From assembly GCA_018671895.1 (NCBI GenBank), contig JABHGV010000070.1:62001-126000 (forward strand): 64,000 bases of DNA, in the 5' to 3' direction. How positions within the stretch are numbered: the first letter of the stretch is position 1; the number at the start of each line of letters is the position of its first letter. The position numbers and the translations under genes are program-made. Below the pieces are notes generated by a model that was given only the letters and a program-made list of their open reading frames with translations, was not told where the DNA came from and did no database searches. Below, piece after piece: positions 9,233-15,720 of the stretch. The DNA is from Rhodospirillaceae bacterium (GTDB lineage Bacteria; Pseudomonadota; Alphaproteobacteria; Rhodospirillales; JABHCV01).

Positions 9233-10786
9233 TCAAGATGCCGCCTTGCCCCGGTACAAACTTTTAACGTCGGCGATGCGCGCCGCGCCCGTAACCTGGG
9301 CCAGCACGGCGAACACCAAGGCGCCGCCCGCGACCAGTCCGGCCAGCCCGATGGCACGTTCGACCTCGGCCCCGCCAAGCCTGTCGGCAAGATGGGGCAA
9401 GGCGAAATACAAGGCCGCGCCCATGCCGATGCTCGCCAGCAACGTCTTCGCAGCGCGTGATTTCAGGCGGGCATCAAAGACAAGGTGCCCACGCCGATAC
9501 AACACGGTGGCCATCAGCCCGGCATTGAGCCAGCTCGACACCGCCGTCGCCATGGCAATGCCCACATGCAGGAACGGTCCCATCAGAATCAGGTTGAGCA
9601 CCAGATTGACGACCATCGCGGCAATCGCAATTTTCACCGGCGTTGAGGTGTCGCCGCGCGCAAAGAAGCCCGGCGCCAGCGCCTTAACCAGCACATAGGC
9701 CGGAAGGCCGATGGCATAAATGCCCAAGGCCGCCGCCGTCGCCGCCGCCTGAATATCGCCAAATGCGCCGCGTTGGAACAGCACCGTGACCACCGGCTCG
9801 GCAATCACCATCAGGGCAATGGCGGCAGGCAGGGTCAGTAGCAAAGAAAATTCCAGCGCCCGGTTCTGGCTGCTGGCCGCCGCCGCTTCGTCGTCGGCAC
9901 GAATTTGTCGGCTCAACAGCGGCAGCAGTGCCGTGCCGACAGCAACGCCGACAACGCCCAAAGGCAACTGATTGACCCGATCGGCAAAAAACAGATACGA
10001 GATCGAGCCTTCAGGCAACAGCGATGCAATGATGGTATCGATCAGCAGGTTGATTTGATAAATCCCCGCCCCCAATGCCACCGGCAGGGCGCGCATCAGC
10101 AACAGTTTGACGTTTTCATTCATCCGCGGGCGCTGCCAACGGGGCCGGAACCCGGCCTTCGACGTGTGCACCATCAGCCAGACGAACTGCACGATGCCGG
10201 CGGTGAACACGCCCCAGGCCAGCGCATGGCCCGGCGTTTCGGCCGCCTGGGCAAACCCCAGCACCGCGCCGATCAGGCAGATATTCAACAGAATTGGCGT
10301 CGCTGCGGCAGCCGCGAACTTGCCGACGGAATTCAGGACGCCTGCAAAAAGCGAGACCAGCGAGATAAACAGCAAATAAGGAAAGGTGATGCGGGTCAGT
10401 TCAACAGCGAGCCCGAATTTTTCCGGATTGTCCAAAAACCCCGGCGCGAACGCCATCATCAACCACGGCATCGCCAGCTCAACAACAATGACGAACCCGA
10501 ACAACGTCCACAGCAGTACCGCCAGTGCCTGATCGGCAAAGCGCCTTGCCGCTTCTTCGCCCTCGGCTTCAAGAATTCCGGCGAACAGGGGCACGAAAGC
10601 CATATTGAAGGCGCCTTCGGCAAACAGGCGGCGGAACAGGTTGGGAAATTTGAAAGCGACGAAAAACACATCGGCCAGCATCCCCGCGCCAAGCACGGCA
10701 GCGATCAGAATATCGCGCACGAACCCGAACAGGCGCGACACAAGCGTCAGCGAACCGACAGTAACGATGGATCGAAGCAAAACCAT
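9233..10786 (-). CDS. murJ: Lipid II flippase MurJ
   Basis: A 517-residue MOP-superfamily integral membrane protein with about 14 hydrophobic segments, flipping lipid II to the periplasmic face. The start region MVLLRSIVTVGSLTLVSRLFGFVRDIL and the next block DVFFVAFKFPNLFRRLFAEGAF are strongly MurJ-like; charged residues in the cavity helices (RDIL, RRLF) are present. I chose the ATG at 10786; an upstream frame adds 29 unrelated residues. It is followed by trpS and diverges from the dsrC cassette. Confidence 0.95.
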   Translation of the reverse strand: MVLLRSIVTVGSLTLVSRLFGFVRDILIAAVLGAGMLADVFFVAFKFPNLFRRLFAEGAFNMAFVPLFAGILEAEGEEAARRFADQALAVLLWTLFGFVIVVELAMPWLMMAFAPGFLDNPEKFGLAVELTRITFPYLLFISLVSLFAGVLNSVGKFAAAAATPILLNICLIGAVLGFAQAAETPGHALAWGVFTAGIVQFVWLMVHTSKAGFRPRWQRPRMNENVKLLLMRALPVALGAGIYQINLLIDTIIASLLPEGSISYLFFADRVNQLPLGVVGVAVGTALLPLLSRQIRADDEAAAASSQNRALEFSLLLTLPAAIALMVIAEPVVTVLFQRGAFGDIQAAATAAALGIYAIGLPAYVLVKALAPGFFARGDTSTPVKIAIAAMVVNLVLNLILMGPFLHVGIAMATAVSSWLNAGLMATVLYRRGHLVFDARLKSRAAKTLLASIGMGAALYFALPHLADRLGGAEVERAIGLAGLVAGGALVFAVLAQVTGAARIADVKSLYRGKAAS

Positions 10787-10915
10787 GTCCGCCTGAATAG
10801 CCGTTAATTGCGGCGCTGAAAAGGCGCGGTCTTCAGATATTTCCTGCTTGCAATGGAGTGCCGCCGCCATCATATGACCGTCATTACGGTTTTAAATTTA
10901 GAAAGCGAGACGATT

Positions 10916-11206
10916 ATGGATTTGAATCTGGATGGTGAAGGCTTCTTGGTGAACCGCGACGACTGGACCCCGGAAGTGGCCCGCGAAATCGCATCCCGTG
11001 ACGACCGCGACCTGACCGAAGAGCACATGAATTATATTCTTGCCGCGCGCAAGATGTTCGATACTGAAGGCACCGTTCCGCCGTTACGCAAATTCTGCAA
11101 GGCACAAAATGCCTCCAAGGCCGACATGTTCGCTTCGTTTCAAACCGGCCCGATGAAGCTGATTTGCAAATGGGGTGGTTTACCGAAACCGACCGGCTGC
11201 GTATAA
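10916..11206 (+). CDS. DsrC/TusE-family protein with both conserved cysteines
   Basis: A 96-residue DsrC-family sulfur carrier. The C-terminal arm has both signature cysteines 11 residues apart, Cys84 (KLICKWGGLP) and the penultimate Cys95 (KPTGCV), the DsrC rather than the TusE pattern. In Dsr systems these cysteines carry a trisulfide or persulfide. A third cysteine (Cys61) lies in the core. No dsrAB, dsrEFH or hdr genes are in the window, so the partner is unknown. It starts at the ATG at 10916 and leads a plus-strand cassette that sits between genes usually adjacent in alphaproteobacteria (murJ and glnD). Confidence 0.88.
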   Translation: MDLNLDGEGFLVNRDDWTPEVAREIASRDDRDLTEEHMNYILAARKMFDTEGTVPPLRKFCKAQNASKADMFASFQTGPMKLICKWGGLPKPTGCV

Positions 11207-11212
11207 CAACGC

Positions 11213-11881
11213 ATGGTTCTTTCCCAGTTAACGGAACAGAAAGCGCTGGTCTTTCACAGGGCAGTTCTGGGTCTGCTTGAGCAGCACCCGAATGTGCGCG
11301 CCCGTGCGCTTGACCAACTTGAACACCTTCGCGCCGACACCGACTCAAACAACGAACTTTGTGACCGCTGGGCAGCGCTTCTTGACTTGCCCATCGACGA
11401 GATGGCCGGGGTTGTTCTGGCCGACACGCCCGACGGCGGCCTGTTGCGCGCCAATTCGCCCTTTACCGACGCCCTTACGCCGGGCGAGCGCAATTCTATC
11501 TGGCGGCGCATCGGACTGGTACAGTTCATGGGATACTATCTGGATGCCGCCGCCGACCTGGCGTTGGAGCTTTCCGATCAAGCCGCCATTACCGGCATCG
11601 CCATCGAAGAGCTGACCATTTGGCAATCCCGGGCACCATTGGAAATCGACAAGGAACACTTGCAGCGCCTGAAGCTGGTCGTCGCCCTGCACAAGACTCT
11701 GGTTGAGCTGGCACCGGACCGCGATGTCCGGCGTCGTTGGTTGCGCGAAGAAAGCGCGACGTTCAAGGCGACGCCCCTGACGTTGCTGAGCGAAGGCAAG
11801 GCGGGCGATGTTCTCGACAATCTTGCGGGCTCGACAAAACTGACATTGGGCCCCGACAACCTGCCCCGCATGGGCAACTGA
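11213..11881 (+). CDS. Putative MbcA/ParS/Xre antitoxin-like protein between two dsrC genes
   Basis: A 222-residue protein. The C-terminal 60 residues look like the toxin-binding domain of MbcA/ParS/Xre antitoxins (DUF2384): LKLVVALHKTLVELAPD, then RRRWLREES, then TPLTLLSEGKAGDVLDNL. The N-terminal half (RWAALLDLPIDEMAGVVLAD, then NSPFTDALTPGERNSIWRRI) recalls a helical domain seen beside such antitoxins, but I cannot name it, and no canonical helix-turn-helix is obvious. No RES-type toxin gene is adjacent; the neighbours are DsrC-family genes six bases upstream and 27 bases downstream. Assignment rests on remembered family patterns and could be wrong. Confidence 0.5.
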   Translation: MVLSQLTEQKALVFHRAVLGLLEQHPNVRARALDQLEHLRADTDSNNELCDRWAALLDLPIDEMAGVVLADTPDGGLLRANSPFTDALTPGERNSIWRRIGLVQFMGYYLDAAADLALELSDQAAITGIAIEELTIWQSRAPLEIDKEHLQRLKLVVALHKTLVELAPDRDVRRRWLREESATFKATPLTLLSEGKAGDVLDNLAGSTKLTLGPDNLPRMGN

Positions 11882-11908
11882 TAAAAAAATCAAAGGAGAC
11901 GCACCCTC

Positions 11909-12238
11909 ATGGCATATGCAGACGTTGAAAAAACCGACAACGGCTTTCTGGTCAATCTGGAAGACTGGAACGAAGATCTGGCGAAGGAAATCGCAACCCT
12001 GGAAGATATTGCGGAATTGTCGGACCGCCACATGGACCTGATTAATTACCTGCGCGATCAGTACATCAACAATCAGGGTGTGCAGCCCAACGAGCGTAAA
12101 ATGGTCAAGGCCATGTCGGCCGAGTGGGACGAGAAAATTTCGACCAAGGAGCTGTACGCCCTGTTTCCCATGCAGCCATCGAAACAGGCCGCCCGCATCG
12201 CCGGTCTGCCGGAAACCAAACGCAAGGGCGGCTATTAA
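11909..12238 (+). CDS. Cysteine-free DsrC-family paralogue (RspA-like)
   Basis: A 109-residue DsrC-family protein with the fold-defining stretches NGFLVNLEDWNEDLAKEIA, RQ-like RDQYINNQGVQPNERKM and YALFPMQPSKQAARIAGLP. The position of the first arm cysteine is alanine (Ala95), and the tail ends PETKRKGGY instead of PKPTGCV; there is no cysteine anywhere. It therefore cannot carry sulfur and may be regulatory or a partner of the first DsrC. A strong AAAGGAG lies nine bases before the ATG. It ends six bases from the converging acidic-tail gene. Confidence 0.85.
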   Translation: MAYADVEKTDNGFLVNLEDWNEDLAKEIATLEDIAELSDRHMDLINYLRDQYINNQGVQPNERKMVKAMSAEWDEKISTKELYALFPMQPSKQAARIAGLPETKRKGGY

Positions 12239-12244
12239 ACGGGC

Positions 12245-12961
12245 CTAGTAATTGTCCCAACTGTCGTATTCGTCGTCATCGTCGTCTTTTACTTCTTCGT
12301 CGTCTTTGAAAACCGGCTCAGATTCATTTTCCTTCATGGCATGCAGATCGTTGTCCTGCCATTCGGTAGGACCGCCACTGTCGTCGACATAGGCATCCTG
12401 CTGGAAGTAGACATCTTCGTCGTCATCATCGTCTCGTTTGTTTTGTTCGATGACTTCTTCCGGCCCCTCATCAATGGGGGCTGATTTTTTCGTCTTTCCG
12501 GCACCCACCGCCTTAACCGCGAGTGCAGATAGCAGAGCGAGGGAGTCGAGGCTTCGCCTGAAAAAGCCGACGATGCGACCGGGACGTCGATTGTTCTTCT
12601 TTTTCGGCTTTCCCTGCTTTGACTTTTTCTCGGAGAAGACCGCAGCCCTTTTGATCCGGCTGTCTTTGGCTTTCCGGAGCATCTTGATGACATTGTCCTG
12701 CATCGCGCCCAGGCGGTCGTTTGTCGCGCCGTCGGGTATCAGCTTGTCAATAACCGGCATGACCTTGTCGATAATCGACTGGTCGCGCTTGCGCGAAAAT
12801 ATCAGCCGAATAATGGCGTCGCTCTGTTGTTTTAACTGCGCTGGTGTCTCGGTGCGTGAAACGATGGCGATCAGGCCCGTCTTTTGGTTTTCAAATAATG
12901 CTTCCCAGTCCGTCGTACCGTCGGCGTTCTGCGGCCATACGCTCTTGTCTGGAATGTTCAT
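12245..12961 (-). CDS. Uncharacterised protein with basic middle and very acidic tail, coupled to glnD
   Basis: 238 residues, not recognised. The N-terminal 100 residues (WEALFENQKTGLIAIVSRTET, trimmed here to its flavour: soluble helical) are followed by a basic block KKSKQGKPKKKNNRRPGR at about 113-130, a hydrophobic stretch SLALLSALAVKAVGAG that might be a membrane segment, and a tail rich in Asp and Glu (RDDDDDEDV and KDDDDDEYDSWDNY). It starts within the glnD stop codon (TAATG), so it is translated as the second gene after glnD. The coupling suggests a role near nitrogen signalling or simply shared expression. Confidence 0.7.
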   Translation of the reverse strand: MNIPDKSVWPQNADGTTDWEALFENQKTGLIAIVSRTETPAQLKQQSDAIIRLIFSRKRDQSIIDKVMPVIDKLIPDGATNDRLGAMQDNVIKMLRKAKDSRIKRAAVFSEKKSKQGKPKKKNNRRPGRIVGFFRRSLDSLALLSALAVKAVGAGKTKKSAPIDEGPEEVIEQNKRDDDDDEDVYFQQDAYVDDSGGPTEWQDNDLHAMKENESEPVFKDDEEVKDDDDDEYDSWDNY

Positions 12962-15720
12962 TACTTTTCCACGCCGTTCGCATCAGATGTGCCTGGCGGC
13001 CTGATCGTCGCAAGCAGGGCGGCGCGTACTGCCTCAAGCTTGTTGTCATGGGCAATTTTCAGTCCGAACACATCCTTGACGTAAAACACGTCGACGACAC
13101 GCTCGCCATAGGTGGCGACGTGGGCCGAAGCGATTTGCAGGCCATTGTCCATCAGAGTCTGGGTAATGTCGCTCAGGAACCCGAGGCGGTCACGCCCGTT
13201 CAGTTCGATCACAGTGTGCTTGGCGCTGACGGCATTGTCGATCAGCACGCGGGGTGCGACCTTGAACACCCGGGTGCGGCTGGGCAACGCCCGGCTGCGA
13301 ACCTCGGCCAGCTCCTTCGTCGCGTTGATGCTGCCTTTCAGGGCCCCCTCGATTCTGTCTTTCAGGCGTTTCAGGCCCTCTTGGCTGGCGAATGCGCCAC
13401 CGTCCGCGTCCTGAATACGAAAGGTGTCCAGCGCCATACCGTTGGACATGGTGGCGACACGGGCATCGACAATTTTCGCCGACGACAACGCCATGGCGGC
13501 CGCAATCCGCTGAAAGACACCGGGATGATCGTGGGTATGAATAATGACTTCAGTGGCGTCTTGTTCGAGGTCGATTTCGGTAACGATATGAACGTTCAGA
13601 TTGTCCTGTTCCGACTTGCGCATGATTTCGGCATAACGAACATGGGCCTCGGTGTCATAGCCAAGCCAGTAATCGTCATAACCAAGGGTGATTTGGTTTT
13701 CTATTTCTTCCCCTGACCAGCCGGGAAGGGAGCTACGAAAGGCGTCCTTGGCGCGTTCGACCTGCTCCCTGTAGCGTTCGCCTGGAATACCACCGGCCAG
13801 AACCTCTTGTGTGCGATAATAGAGTTCGCGCAACAATGTTGCCTTCCAGCCGTTCCAGACGCCGGGACCGACGGCACGAATATCGACGACTGTCAGAATC
13901 AGCAACAGGCGCAGCCGTTCCGGCGACTGCACGACTTCGACAAAGTCGCTGATGGTTTGCTGGTCTTCGATCTCGCGCTTGAAGGCGCTGTGGCTCATCA
14001 ACAGGTGATGGCGCACCAGCCATGCCACAGTTTCCGTTTCCCAGTCATTCAGGCCCATGCGCGGACACACACGTTCGGCAATTTCGGCCCCCAGTTCGGA
14101 ATGATCACCGCCCCGGCCCTTGGCCACGTCGTGCAGCAGCACCGCCAGATAAAGCACGCGGCGCGATTGCACTTCGTGAATGACGCTTGAGGCCACCGGA
14201 TGGTCGTCTCTCAGGACGCCAGCCTCGATGCGCGACAGGATTCCAATTGCCCGGATGATGTGCTCGTCGACCGTATAGACGTGATACATGTCGTATTGCA
14301 TCTGGGCGACGACGCGCCCGAAATCAGGAATGAAGCGACCCAGAACACCCGCTTCGCTCATCCGGTTGAGAGTCGTACGCGGATCCTTTTTTGACGTCAG
14401 AATATCCAGAAAGACGTCGTTCGCCGCCCCGTCTTTGCGTAAATCCACATCGATCAGGCGCAGGTTCTGGGTTACAAGTCGAAGGGCGTTGGGGTGAATA
14501 TCAAGACCGTTGCGCTGGGCCTCGGCGAACAGAGTCAGAATTTTCAGCGGGTCAGCCTTAAGTGCCTCCTTAGTGGAAAAATTCAGGCGGTCGCCATCGA
14601 CGCTGAATCCGTCGATGTTCTGGCGCATGAATGACAGGCTGGGCAGCCGGAAGTGCTGTTTTTTCTGTTCGGATTCCAATACCGCACACAGGATTCGGGT
14701 CAGGTCACCGACATCCTTGGCGACCAGAAAATAATGCTTCATGAATCTTTCTACGGCGCGCGCGCCGGGCCGCGTGACATAGGACATGCGCGTGGCCAGG
14801 TCGTCCTGAACGTTGAAGGTCAGTCGTTCTTCGGGGCGGGCGGCGAGATAATGCAGGTGACAGCGCACCGTCCATAAAAAATTCGCCGCCTTGGCAAAAC
14901 GGCTGGCATCGCGCTTGGTCAACACGTCTTTTTCGACCAGCCCGGAAACGTCTTCGACCCGATAGGTATACTTGGCGATCCAGTAAAGCGTTTGCAGGTC
15001 GCGCAGGCCGCCCTTGCCTTCCTTGATGTTGGGTTCCAGCACATAACGGGTGTCGCCCATTCGTTCGTGGCGGTCATCGCGTTCGGCCAGCTTGGCGGTA
15101 ACGAACGCGGCGGCACTGCCGGCGACGACTTCATCGCTGAATTTGTCCTTGAAACGTTTGAACAGGTCCTTGTCGCCCCATAGCCAGCGTGCTTCCAGCA
15201 GCGACGTGCGAATGGTCAGATCTTCTTTCGACAGCTTCACCACTTCGTCGGCCGTGCGTGTGGCATGGCCGACCTTGAGGCCTAAATCCCAGAGCATATA
15301 GAGCATGTACTCAATGACCTGGCTGGTCCTGGACGTGCTTTTCGGGTTAAGCAGAAACATCAGATCGATATCGGAAAACGGCGCCAGCTCGCCACGCCCG
15401 TAGCCACCGGTAGCGACGACGGAAATCGCATCGCCGGAAGATTTCTTGCTCGTCGGAAAGACGCACTCTTCGATAAAATCGAACAGGATGCGGATCAACT
15501 GGTCAATCAGGAACGACTGGGCATGGACCGTCTGCATGCCGGTCGCACCATCATCTTCGAAACGGCGACGCACCTCTGCCGTACCGGCAGCCATCGACTG
15601 CTTGAGCACACCAAGCACTTGTCTGCGGTCAACTTCACCACCGGATTGAACGACACCTTCGAGGGATGCCATAAGCGTTTTACGATCAATAATGTCACGC
15701 TGTTTGGGTATGCTTGCCAT
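12961..15720 (-). CDS. glnD: Bifunctional uridylyltransferase/uridylyl-removing enzyme GlnD
   Basis: A 919-residue nitrogen sensor that uridylylates PII proteins when glutamine is low and removes UMP when it is high. Domain order is an N-terminal nucleotidyltransferase (ATGGYGRGELAPFSDIDLMF, about residues 106-125), a helical PII-associated region, an HD hydrolase (VLLHDVAKGRGGDHSELG, about 515-532), and two C-terminal ACT domains (EVIIHTHDHPGVFQRIAAAM and TVIELNGRDRLGFLSDITQT) that sense glutamine. Length and motifs are complete. It follows mutS by 14 bases and precedes the acidic-tail gene. Confidence 0.97.
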   Translation of the reverse strand: MASIPKQRDIIDRKTLMASLEGVVQSGGEVDRRQVLGVLKQSMAAGTAEVRRRFEDDGATGMQTVHAQSFLIDQLIRILFDFIEECVFPTSKKSSGDAISVVATGGYGRGELAPFSDIDLMFLLNPKSTSRTSQVIEYMLYMLWDLGLKVGHATRTADEVVKLSKEDLTIRTSLLEARWLWGDKDLFKRFKDKFSDEVVAGSAAAFVTAKLAERDDRHERMGDTRYVLEPNIKEGKGGLRDLQTLYWIAKYTYRVEDVSGLVEKDVLTKRDASRFAKAANFLWTVRCHLHYLAARPEERLTFNVQDDLATRMSYVTRPGARAVERFMKHYFLVAKDVGDLTRILCAVLESEQKKQHFRLPSLSFMRQNIDGFSVDGDRLNFSTKEALKADPLKILTLFAEAQRNGLDIHPNALRLVTQNLRLIDVDLRKDGAANDVFLDILTSKKDPRTTLNRMSEAGVLGRFIPDFGRVVAQMQYDMYHVYTVDEHIIRAIGILSRIEAGVLRDDHPVASSVIHEVQSRRVLYLAVLLHDVAKGRGGDHSELGAEIAERVCPRMGLNDWETETVAWLVRHHLLMSHSAFKREIEDQQTISDFVEVVQSPERLRLLLILTVVDIRAVGPGVWNGWKATLLRELYYRTQEVLAGGIPGERYREQVERAKDAFRSSLPGWSGEEIENQITLGYDDYWLGYDTEAHVRYAEIMRKSEQDNLNVHIVTEIDLEQDATEVIIHTHDHPGVFQRIAAAMALSSAKIVDARVATMSNGMALDTFRIQDADGGAFASQEGLKRLKDRIEGALKGSINATKELAEVRSRALPSRTRVFKVAPRVLIDNAVSAKHTVIELNGRDRLGFLSDITQTLMDNGLQIASAHVATYGERVVDVFYVKDVFGLKIAHDNKLEAVRAALLATIRPPGTSDANGVEK

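What the first reader, a model, noticed from the sequence alone, without database searches (positions are those of the whole stretch)
10916..12238. DsrC - antitoxin-like - cysteine-free DsrC cassette inserted into a conserved gene order
Three plus-strand genes interrupt the usual alphaproteobacterial mutS-glnD-murJ-trpS block, which runs on the minus strand. The first protein has both DsrC arm cysteines (Cys84, Cys95), the third is a DsrC-family protein without any cysteine, and the middle gene resembles an MbcA/ParS/Xre antitoxin. No dsrAB, dsrEFH or hdr genes are nearby. This could be a sulfur-state sensing unit in which a carrier and a dead paralogue act with a DNA- or toxin-binding protein. 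The sequence shows the gene content; function is inference.
Basis: partly seen in the sequence, partly recalled or inferred. Interest (0 to 1): 0.75.

Follow-up and report, generated by a model that had tools for sequence, protein, structure and literature searches.

The report
DsrC-paralogue cassette with antitoxin-fold protein
A sulfur-oxidising marine bacterium carries a small operon that joins two offshoots of the sulfur-carrier protein DsrC (one with its reactive cysteines, one without) to a protein built like a toxin's antidote but apparently stripped of its DNA- and toxin-binding features; relatives of all three occur almost only in bacteria that oxidise sulfur by the same enzyme pathway.

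Summary
In detail: D1 (DsrC, Cys84/Cys95) - MID - D3 (Cys-free DsrC) is a tight plus-strand operon inserted, with one further ORF, between glnD and murJ, which are adjacent in four relatives of the same family. The genome has a dsr operon on another contig, so the host is very likely an rDsr sulfur oxidiser. D1 and D3 are two distinct, monophyletic DsrC subfamilies (20 and 32 of 317 genomes of the order). MID is a real Xre/MbcA/ParS-fold protein (AF2 pLDDT 89; NatR TM 0.85) with an extra N-terminal helical domain, but its HTH is acidic, it lacks the toxin-plugging tail, and no toxin gene is adjacent. All 21 MID genomes, all 32 D3 genomes and 19 of 20 D1 genomes carry dsrA (107/317 do). The exact triplet was found only here, but rhodanese-MID-D3 occurs in two genomes of another family and rhodanese-MID in a family relative. 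So a sulfur-carrier gene precedes MID in all four linked loci, and D3 follows it in three. I read it as an accessory, probably protein-protein gating, module of rDsr sulfur oxidation. Function is inferred throughout.

The parts
10787..10915 (.). Intergenic region between the probable murJ start (about 10786) and D1; would hold the cassette promoter
   Evidence: murJ homologues align from about residue 24-29 of the long ORF and their ORFs begin there; no promoter above chance; only a weak 5+5 palindrome ACCGTCATTACGGT
10916..11206 (+). D1: 96-aa DsrC-family protein with CysA (84) and CysB (95) in the C-terminal arm
   Evidence: PF04358 E 1.8e-22, TIGR03342 67.9 bits over cut-off 53.5; D1 clade 100/100; arm motif in 20 of 20 orthologues
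11213..11881 (+). MID: 222-aa protein; residues about 1-95 a helical domain without match, about 100-210 an Xre/MbcA/ParS-like fold (HTH plus toxin-binding-like domain)
11909..12238 (+). D3: 109-aa DsrC-family protein without cysteine, arm ending AGLPETKRKGGY
   Evidence: PF04358 E 1.7e-30; TIGR03342 88.3 bits; D3 clade 99/91; tail conserved at 0.95 against 0.73 for the body
12245..12961 (-). 238-aa lysine- and acid-rich ORF of unknown function, also absent from the glnD-murJ junction of relatives; probably not part of the cassette
   Evidence: no acceptable family hit; junction in relatives
9233..10786 (-). murJ (flank)
12961..15720 (-). glnD (flank)

Best explanation
The cassette is an accessory module of cytoplasmic (reverse Dsr) sulfur oxidation. 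D1 is a second, two-cysteine DsrC-type sulfur carrier. D3 is a cysteine-free DsrC whose body and arm are kept for docking, not chemistry. MID is an antitoxin-derived, all-helical adaptor that binds proteins (most likely D3, the carrier or a shared partner such as DsrEFH, DsrAB or DsrMK) instead of DNA or a toxin. I propose that the MID-D3 pair gates carrier traffic: D3 occupies DsrC docking sites, and MID sets its availability according to the state of the carrier encoded upstream, which is D1 here and a rhodanese elsewhere. Shown: gene content, operon layout, predicted fold of MID, family identities, co-occurrence with dsrA, the MID-D3 pair in two families, a carrier-type gene upstream of MID in all four linked loci. 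Inferred: every interaction and the gating itself.
For: Co-occurrence: 21/21 MID, 32/32 D3 and 19/20 D1 genomes have dsrA over cut-off against 107/317 overall (hypergeometric 3e-11 for MID, 3.6e-6 by genus; 4e-4 stratified by family). Full-length MID was not found among about 354 other alphaproteobacterial genomes or in plasmids; only ordinary Xre antitoxins matched. Linkage: window D1-MID-D3; G124 and G138 rhodanese-MID-D3; G004 rhodanese-MID; these MIDs group together (75/95). G000 has only distant rhodaneses, where G001, G002 and G004 have that subtype. Within dsrA+ genomes MID goes with D3 (13 of 21, p 7e-4) and D1 with D3 (p 1.6e-5), without correction for kinship. The D3 arm is more conserved than its body despite having no Cys. 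Acidic HTH and lost tail argue for a protein-binding role.
Against: D1, MID and D3 are each usually alone: MID is linked to D3, D1 or this rhodanese in only 4 of 21 genomes, two of them sister species; D1 and D3 are otherwise solitary genes. AF2 of the MID-D3 read-through gave pTM 0.61 against 0.74 for MID alone, so no confident interface. Co-occurrence with dsrA may reflect shared descent. No expression or binding data exist.
Confidence: 0.35

Rival explanations
1. Chance neighbourhood: three separately useful accessory genes of rDsr bacteria happened to be inserted together between glnD and murJ, without working as a unit.
For: Exact triplet unique; each gene usually solitary; the window D1 is sister to a solitary D1 of the same family (99/94), whereas D3 was not found in the other five genomes of the family, so the cassette is a recent join; another unrelated ORF sits in the same insertion.
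Against: Gaps of 6 and 27 nt and one strand; MID-D3 adjacency recurs in another family with a sulfur carrier upstream.
Confidence: 0.25
2. Sulfur-state transcriptional regulator: MID binds DNA, controls its own operon or dsr genes, and DsrC-type proteins tune it.
For: Xre-family HTH fold; Xre/RES and NatR/NatT complexes bind their own promoters (PMC12204516, abstract; PMC11535050); location of MID inside the operon.
Against: HTH net charge -1 to -6 in 18 of 18 MIDs, against 0 or more in 17 of 18 ordinary Xre antitoxins; no strong palindrome or shared site upstream.
Confidence: 0.2
3. D1 and D3 serve another sulfur relay (for example a TusE-like role in tRNA thiolation) and the tie to dsrA is phylogenetic.
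For: The TIGR03342 family includes TusE; D1 and D3 are not in dsr operons.
Against: All 32 D3 and 19 of 20 D1 genomes have dsrA; both fail the TusE equivalog cut-off by far.
Confidence: 0.1
4. Remnant or variant toxin-antitoxin pair, with MID an antitoxin and D3 (or a distant RES protein) the toxin or its mimic.
For: Antitoxin fold; small two-gene MID-D3 pair.
Against: D3 is a DsrC, not a toxin family; C-terminal plug and positive contact residues lost; 15 of 21 genomes have no RES protein and the window genome only a fragment at a contig edge; no PADLOC match.
Confidence: 0.05

Closest known systems
DsrC/TusE family (TIGR03342, PF04358), e.g. Allochromatium vinosum DsrC (PDB 1yx3)
   Same: D1 has both arm cysteines with the same spacing and ends PTGCV; D3 is related by sequence (62.7 bits to 1yx3)
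   Different: D1 forms its own clade and lacks a 7-residue segment present in A. vinosum DsrC (also absent in the 1ji8 DsrC); D3 lacks CysB in all orthologues and CysA in most; neither is in a dsr operon
DsrC homologues without the two cysteines outside dsr operons (reported in the Solemya velum symbiont, PMC4287430; viral dsrC_1, PMC4164917)
   Same: Extra, cysteine-poor DsrC genes in or associated with rDsr sulfur oxidisers
   Different: The passages read give no partner; D3 has its own conserved arm and, in three genomes, a MID neighbour
NatR (NatR/NatT) and MbcA, Xre/MbcA/ParS antitoxins (PDB 8qnl, 8qnq, 6fkg)
   Same: MID residues about 100-210 have the same predicted fold (TM 0.85 to NatR, probability 1.00) and detectable sequence similarity (profile E 6.6e-7)
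   Different: Extra N-terminal domain, acidic HTH, no C-terminal plug, no RES toxin next door

Membership tests
DsrC (D1) | Family score over curated cut-off | tested here: met
   TIGR03342 67.9 over 53.5 bits; PF04358 80.2 over 24.9
DsrC (D1) | CysA and CysB 11 residues apart in the C-terminal arm | tested here: met
   Cys84/Cys95; 20 of 20 orthologues
DsrC (D1) | Persulfide or trisulfide carriage between DsrEFH, DsrAB and DsrMKJOP | not testable with these tools
   needs biochemistry
DsrC (D3) | Family score over curated cut-off | tested here: met
   TIGR03342 88.3 bits; PF04358 106.1 bits
DsrC (D3) | Redox cysteines in the arm | tested here: not met
   no Cys in window D3; CysB absent in 30 of 30, CysA in 28 of 30 distinct orthologues; a DsrC-family paralogue, not a functional DsrC
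Xre/MbcA/ParS antitoxin (MID) | HTH plus toxin-binding-domain fold | tested here: met
   AF2 model and Foldseek to NatR, MbcA, VPA0769
Xre/MbcA/ParS antitoxin (MID) | Pfam PF09722 curated cut-off | tested here: not met
   14.6 under 24.5 bits for the window protein; 13 of 18 homologues match at E up to 0.1
Xre/MbcA/ParS antitoxin (MID) | Basic HTH able to bind DNA | tested here: not met
   net charge mean -3.8 against +1.3; a charge count, not a binding test
Type II RES/Xre toxin-antitoxin system | Cognate toxin gene adjacent | tested here: not met
   neighbours of MID are DsrC, rhodanese or unrelated genes; RES in 6 of 21 genomes
RspA-type regulatory DsrC homologues (recalled from the literature) | Subfamily definition in the original review | not tested
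   review not held in the library; a lead only

The most novel reading that the evidence does not exclude
An antitoxin fold has been recruited as a sulfur-carrier adaptor: MID, with the cysteine-free DsrC, forms a protein gate on the DsrC pool of reverse-Dsr sulfur oxidisers, reading the state of an interchangeable upstream carrier (DsrC-like D1 or rhodanese).
Probability: 0.2. Interest if true: 0.75.

Novelty: new variant of a known kind. Interest (0 to 1): 0.5.

Why it matters
DsrC paralogues without cysteines have been seen in sulfur oxidisers without any known role. MID is, as far as the searches here show, an undescribed family confined to dsr-bearing members of one order, and it is sometimes encoded beside such a paralogue and a sulfur carrier. 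It gives a concrete partner to test. If right, it would show an antitoxin fold turned to energy metabolism.

Tried and rejected
Toxin-antitoxin reading: rejected as the main one (no adjacent toxin, lost contact features). Mobile or phage origin: MID not in plasmids, D3 only at 32-38% identity in phages and no relative in viral contigs; cassette GC 0.568, like the window's 0.574. Regulatory RNA: none. Shared operator: none convincing. MID-D3 interface by AF2 of the read-through chain: inconclusive. The search for related loci with the wide MID alignment failed; the narrow one gave only uncultured alphaproteobacterial (mostly Rhodospirillales) MAGs. Literature search for a DsrC regulatory subfamily found no held review.

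Full report
WHAT IS THERE. Three plus-strand genes, 10916-11206 (D1), 11213-11881 (MID) and 11909-12238 (D3), are separated by 6 and 27 nt. D1 and D3 are DsrC-family proteins over curated cut-offs. In the same family of genomes (G001, G002, G003, G004) and in G013, glnD and murJ are neighbours with no cassette between them (in G004 murJ is split over contigs), so the cassette, together with a 238-aa minus-strand ORF (12245-12961), is an insertion peculiar to this lineage. The same genome carries a dsr operon (dsrA, dsrB, dsrEFH, canonical two-Cys dsrC, dsrM and downstream genes) on contig C15. The host is therefore very likely a reverse-Dsr sulfur oxidiser (established pathway knowledge; PMC3397948).

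THE TWO DsrC PARALOGUES. A tree of 84 DsrC-family proteins puts D1 in one clade (100/100) and D3 in another (99/91), both apart from the operon DsrC. In 317 genomes of the order D1 orthologues occur in 20 and D3 orthologues in 32, with a wide score gap to other DsrC proteins (D1 110 against 62 bits; D3 138 against 75 bits). All 20 D1 proteins keep both arm cysteines. D3 keeps a strongly conserved tail (GLPETKRKGGY; 0.95 against 0.73 for the body) without CysB; 2 of 30 distinct D3 proteins have Cys at the CysA place. D3 is thus a maintained, not a decaying, cysteine-free protein. Both are usually solitary genes.

THE MIDDLE PROTEIN. Thirteen of 18 MID homologues match PF09722 (best 4.3e-7), and a profile of the family finds NatR and MbcA in the PDB (6.6e-7, 3.2e-5). 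The AF2 model (pLDDT 89.4, pTM 0.74) matches NatR over about 110 C-terminal residues (TM 0.85 by target length, probability 1.00). About 95 N-terminal residues have no match. Compared with 18 ordinary Xre-type antitoxins, nearly all from elsewhere in the class, MID's HTH region is acidic (mean -3.8 against +1.3; all 18 MIDs negative), and the usual C-terminal 'RQYLDAxRGGW' tail is missing. In NatR the C-terminal helix enters the toxin's active site and positive residues contact the toxin (PMC11535050), so both canonical functions look lost. This is inference from sequence. Fifteen of 21 MID genomes have no RES protein at all.

TIE TO SULFUR OXIDATION. dsrA (TIGR02064) is over cut-off in 107 of 317 genomes. 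All 21 MID genomes, all 32 D3 genomes and 19 of 20 D1 genomes are among them (the exception is a 75% complete genome). Hypergeometric values are 3e-11 (MID, by genome) and 3.6e-6 (MID, by genus). Keeping each MID genome within its own family the chance is about 4e-4 (family counts were taken by hand). Full-length MID did not turn up outside the order in an even draw of about 350 other alphaproteobacterial genomes.

LINKAGE. The exact triplet was found only in the window. In G124 and G138 the order is rhodanese-MID-D3 on one strand; in G004 it is rhodanese-MID. These four MIDs group together (75/95). The window genome has only distant rhodaneses, while G001, G002 and G004 have that subtype. So the slot upstream of MID holds a sulfur-carrier gene of one kind or another, and D3 follows MID in two families. 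The sample is small: four genomes, two of them sisters, and 17 MID genomes without the linkage.

MECHANISM. Best reading (0.35): an accessory protein-protein module of rDsr sulfur oxidation, with D1 (or rhodanese) as carrier, D3 as a docking-competent but chemically dead DsrC, and MID as adaptor. An AF2 run of the MID-D3 read-through chain (stops read as residues, for folding only) gave two well folded parts and pTM 0.61, which does not establish an interface. Rivals: chance neighbourhood (0.25), transcriptional regulator (0.20), another sulfur relay (0.10), toxin-antitoxin (0.05).

NOVELTY. Cysteine-poor DsrC homologues outside dsr operons are known (PMC4287430; PMC4164917), and antitoxin folds are known. 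A dsr-restricted antitoxin-fold family encoded beside a cysteine-free DsrC was not found in the papers searched. New variant of a known kind.

Noticed in passing
window 12245-12961 (-): Lysine- and acid-rich 238-aa ORF without acceptable family hit, absent from the glnD-murJ junction of relatives.
   Followed up: partly
L155 688-1479 and L157 700-1491 (G164, G202): D3 is followed at once, on the same strand, by a glutaredoxin/ArsC-like gene (motif GCSSC), another redox link for D3.
   Followed up: no
L152, L068, L071 (G100, G092, G025): A third DsrC paralogue class with one arm Cys, ending YVQQ(A/T)CKIAGM..PR.WSTG, lies 0.3-3 kb from D3 in three genomes.
   Followed up: partly
L178 and L180 (G004, G002): The MID-associated rhodanese subtype lies next to a SelO-like (YdiU) gene, with or without MID between them.
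   Followed up: no
L107 (G235 C21:3967-4191): A 105-aa stand-alone protein resembles the N-terminal domain of MID (LRATAPFPGVL..RRWAI), hinting that this domain exists on its own.
   Followed up: no
L103 543-914 and 1486-2148 (G151): A weaker rhodanese (68 bits) lies about 570 bp upstream of a MID of another branch.
   Followed up: no
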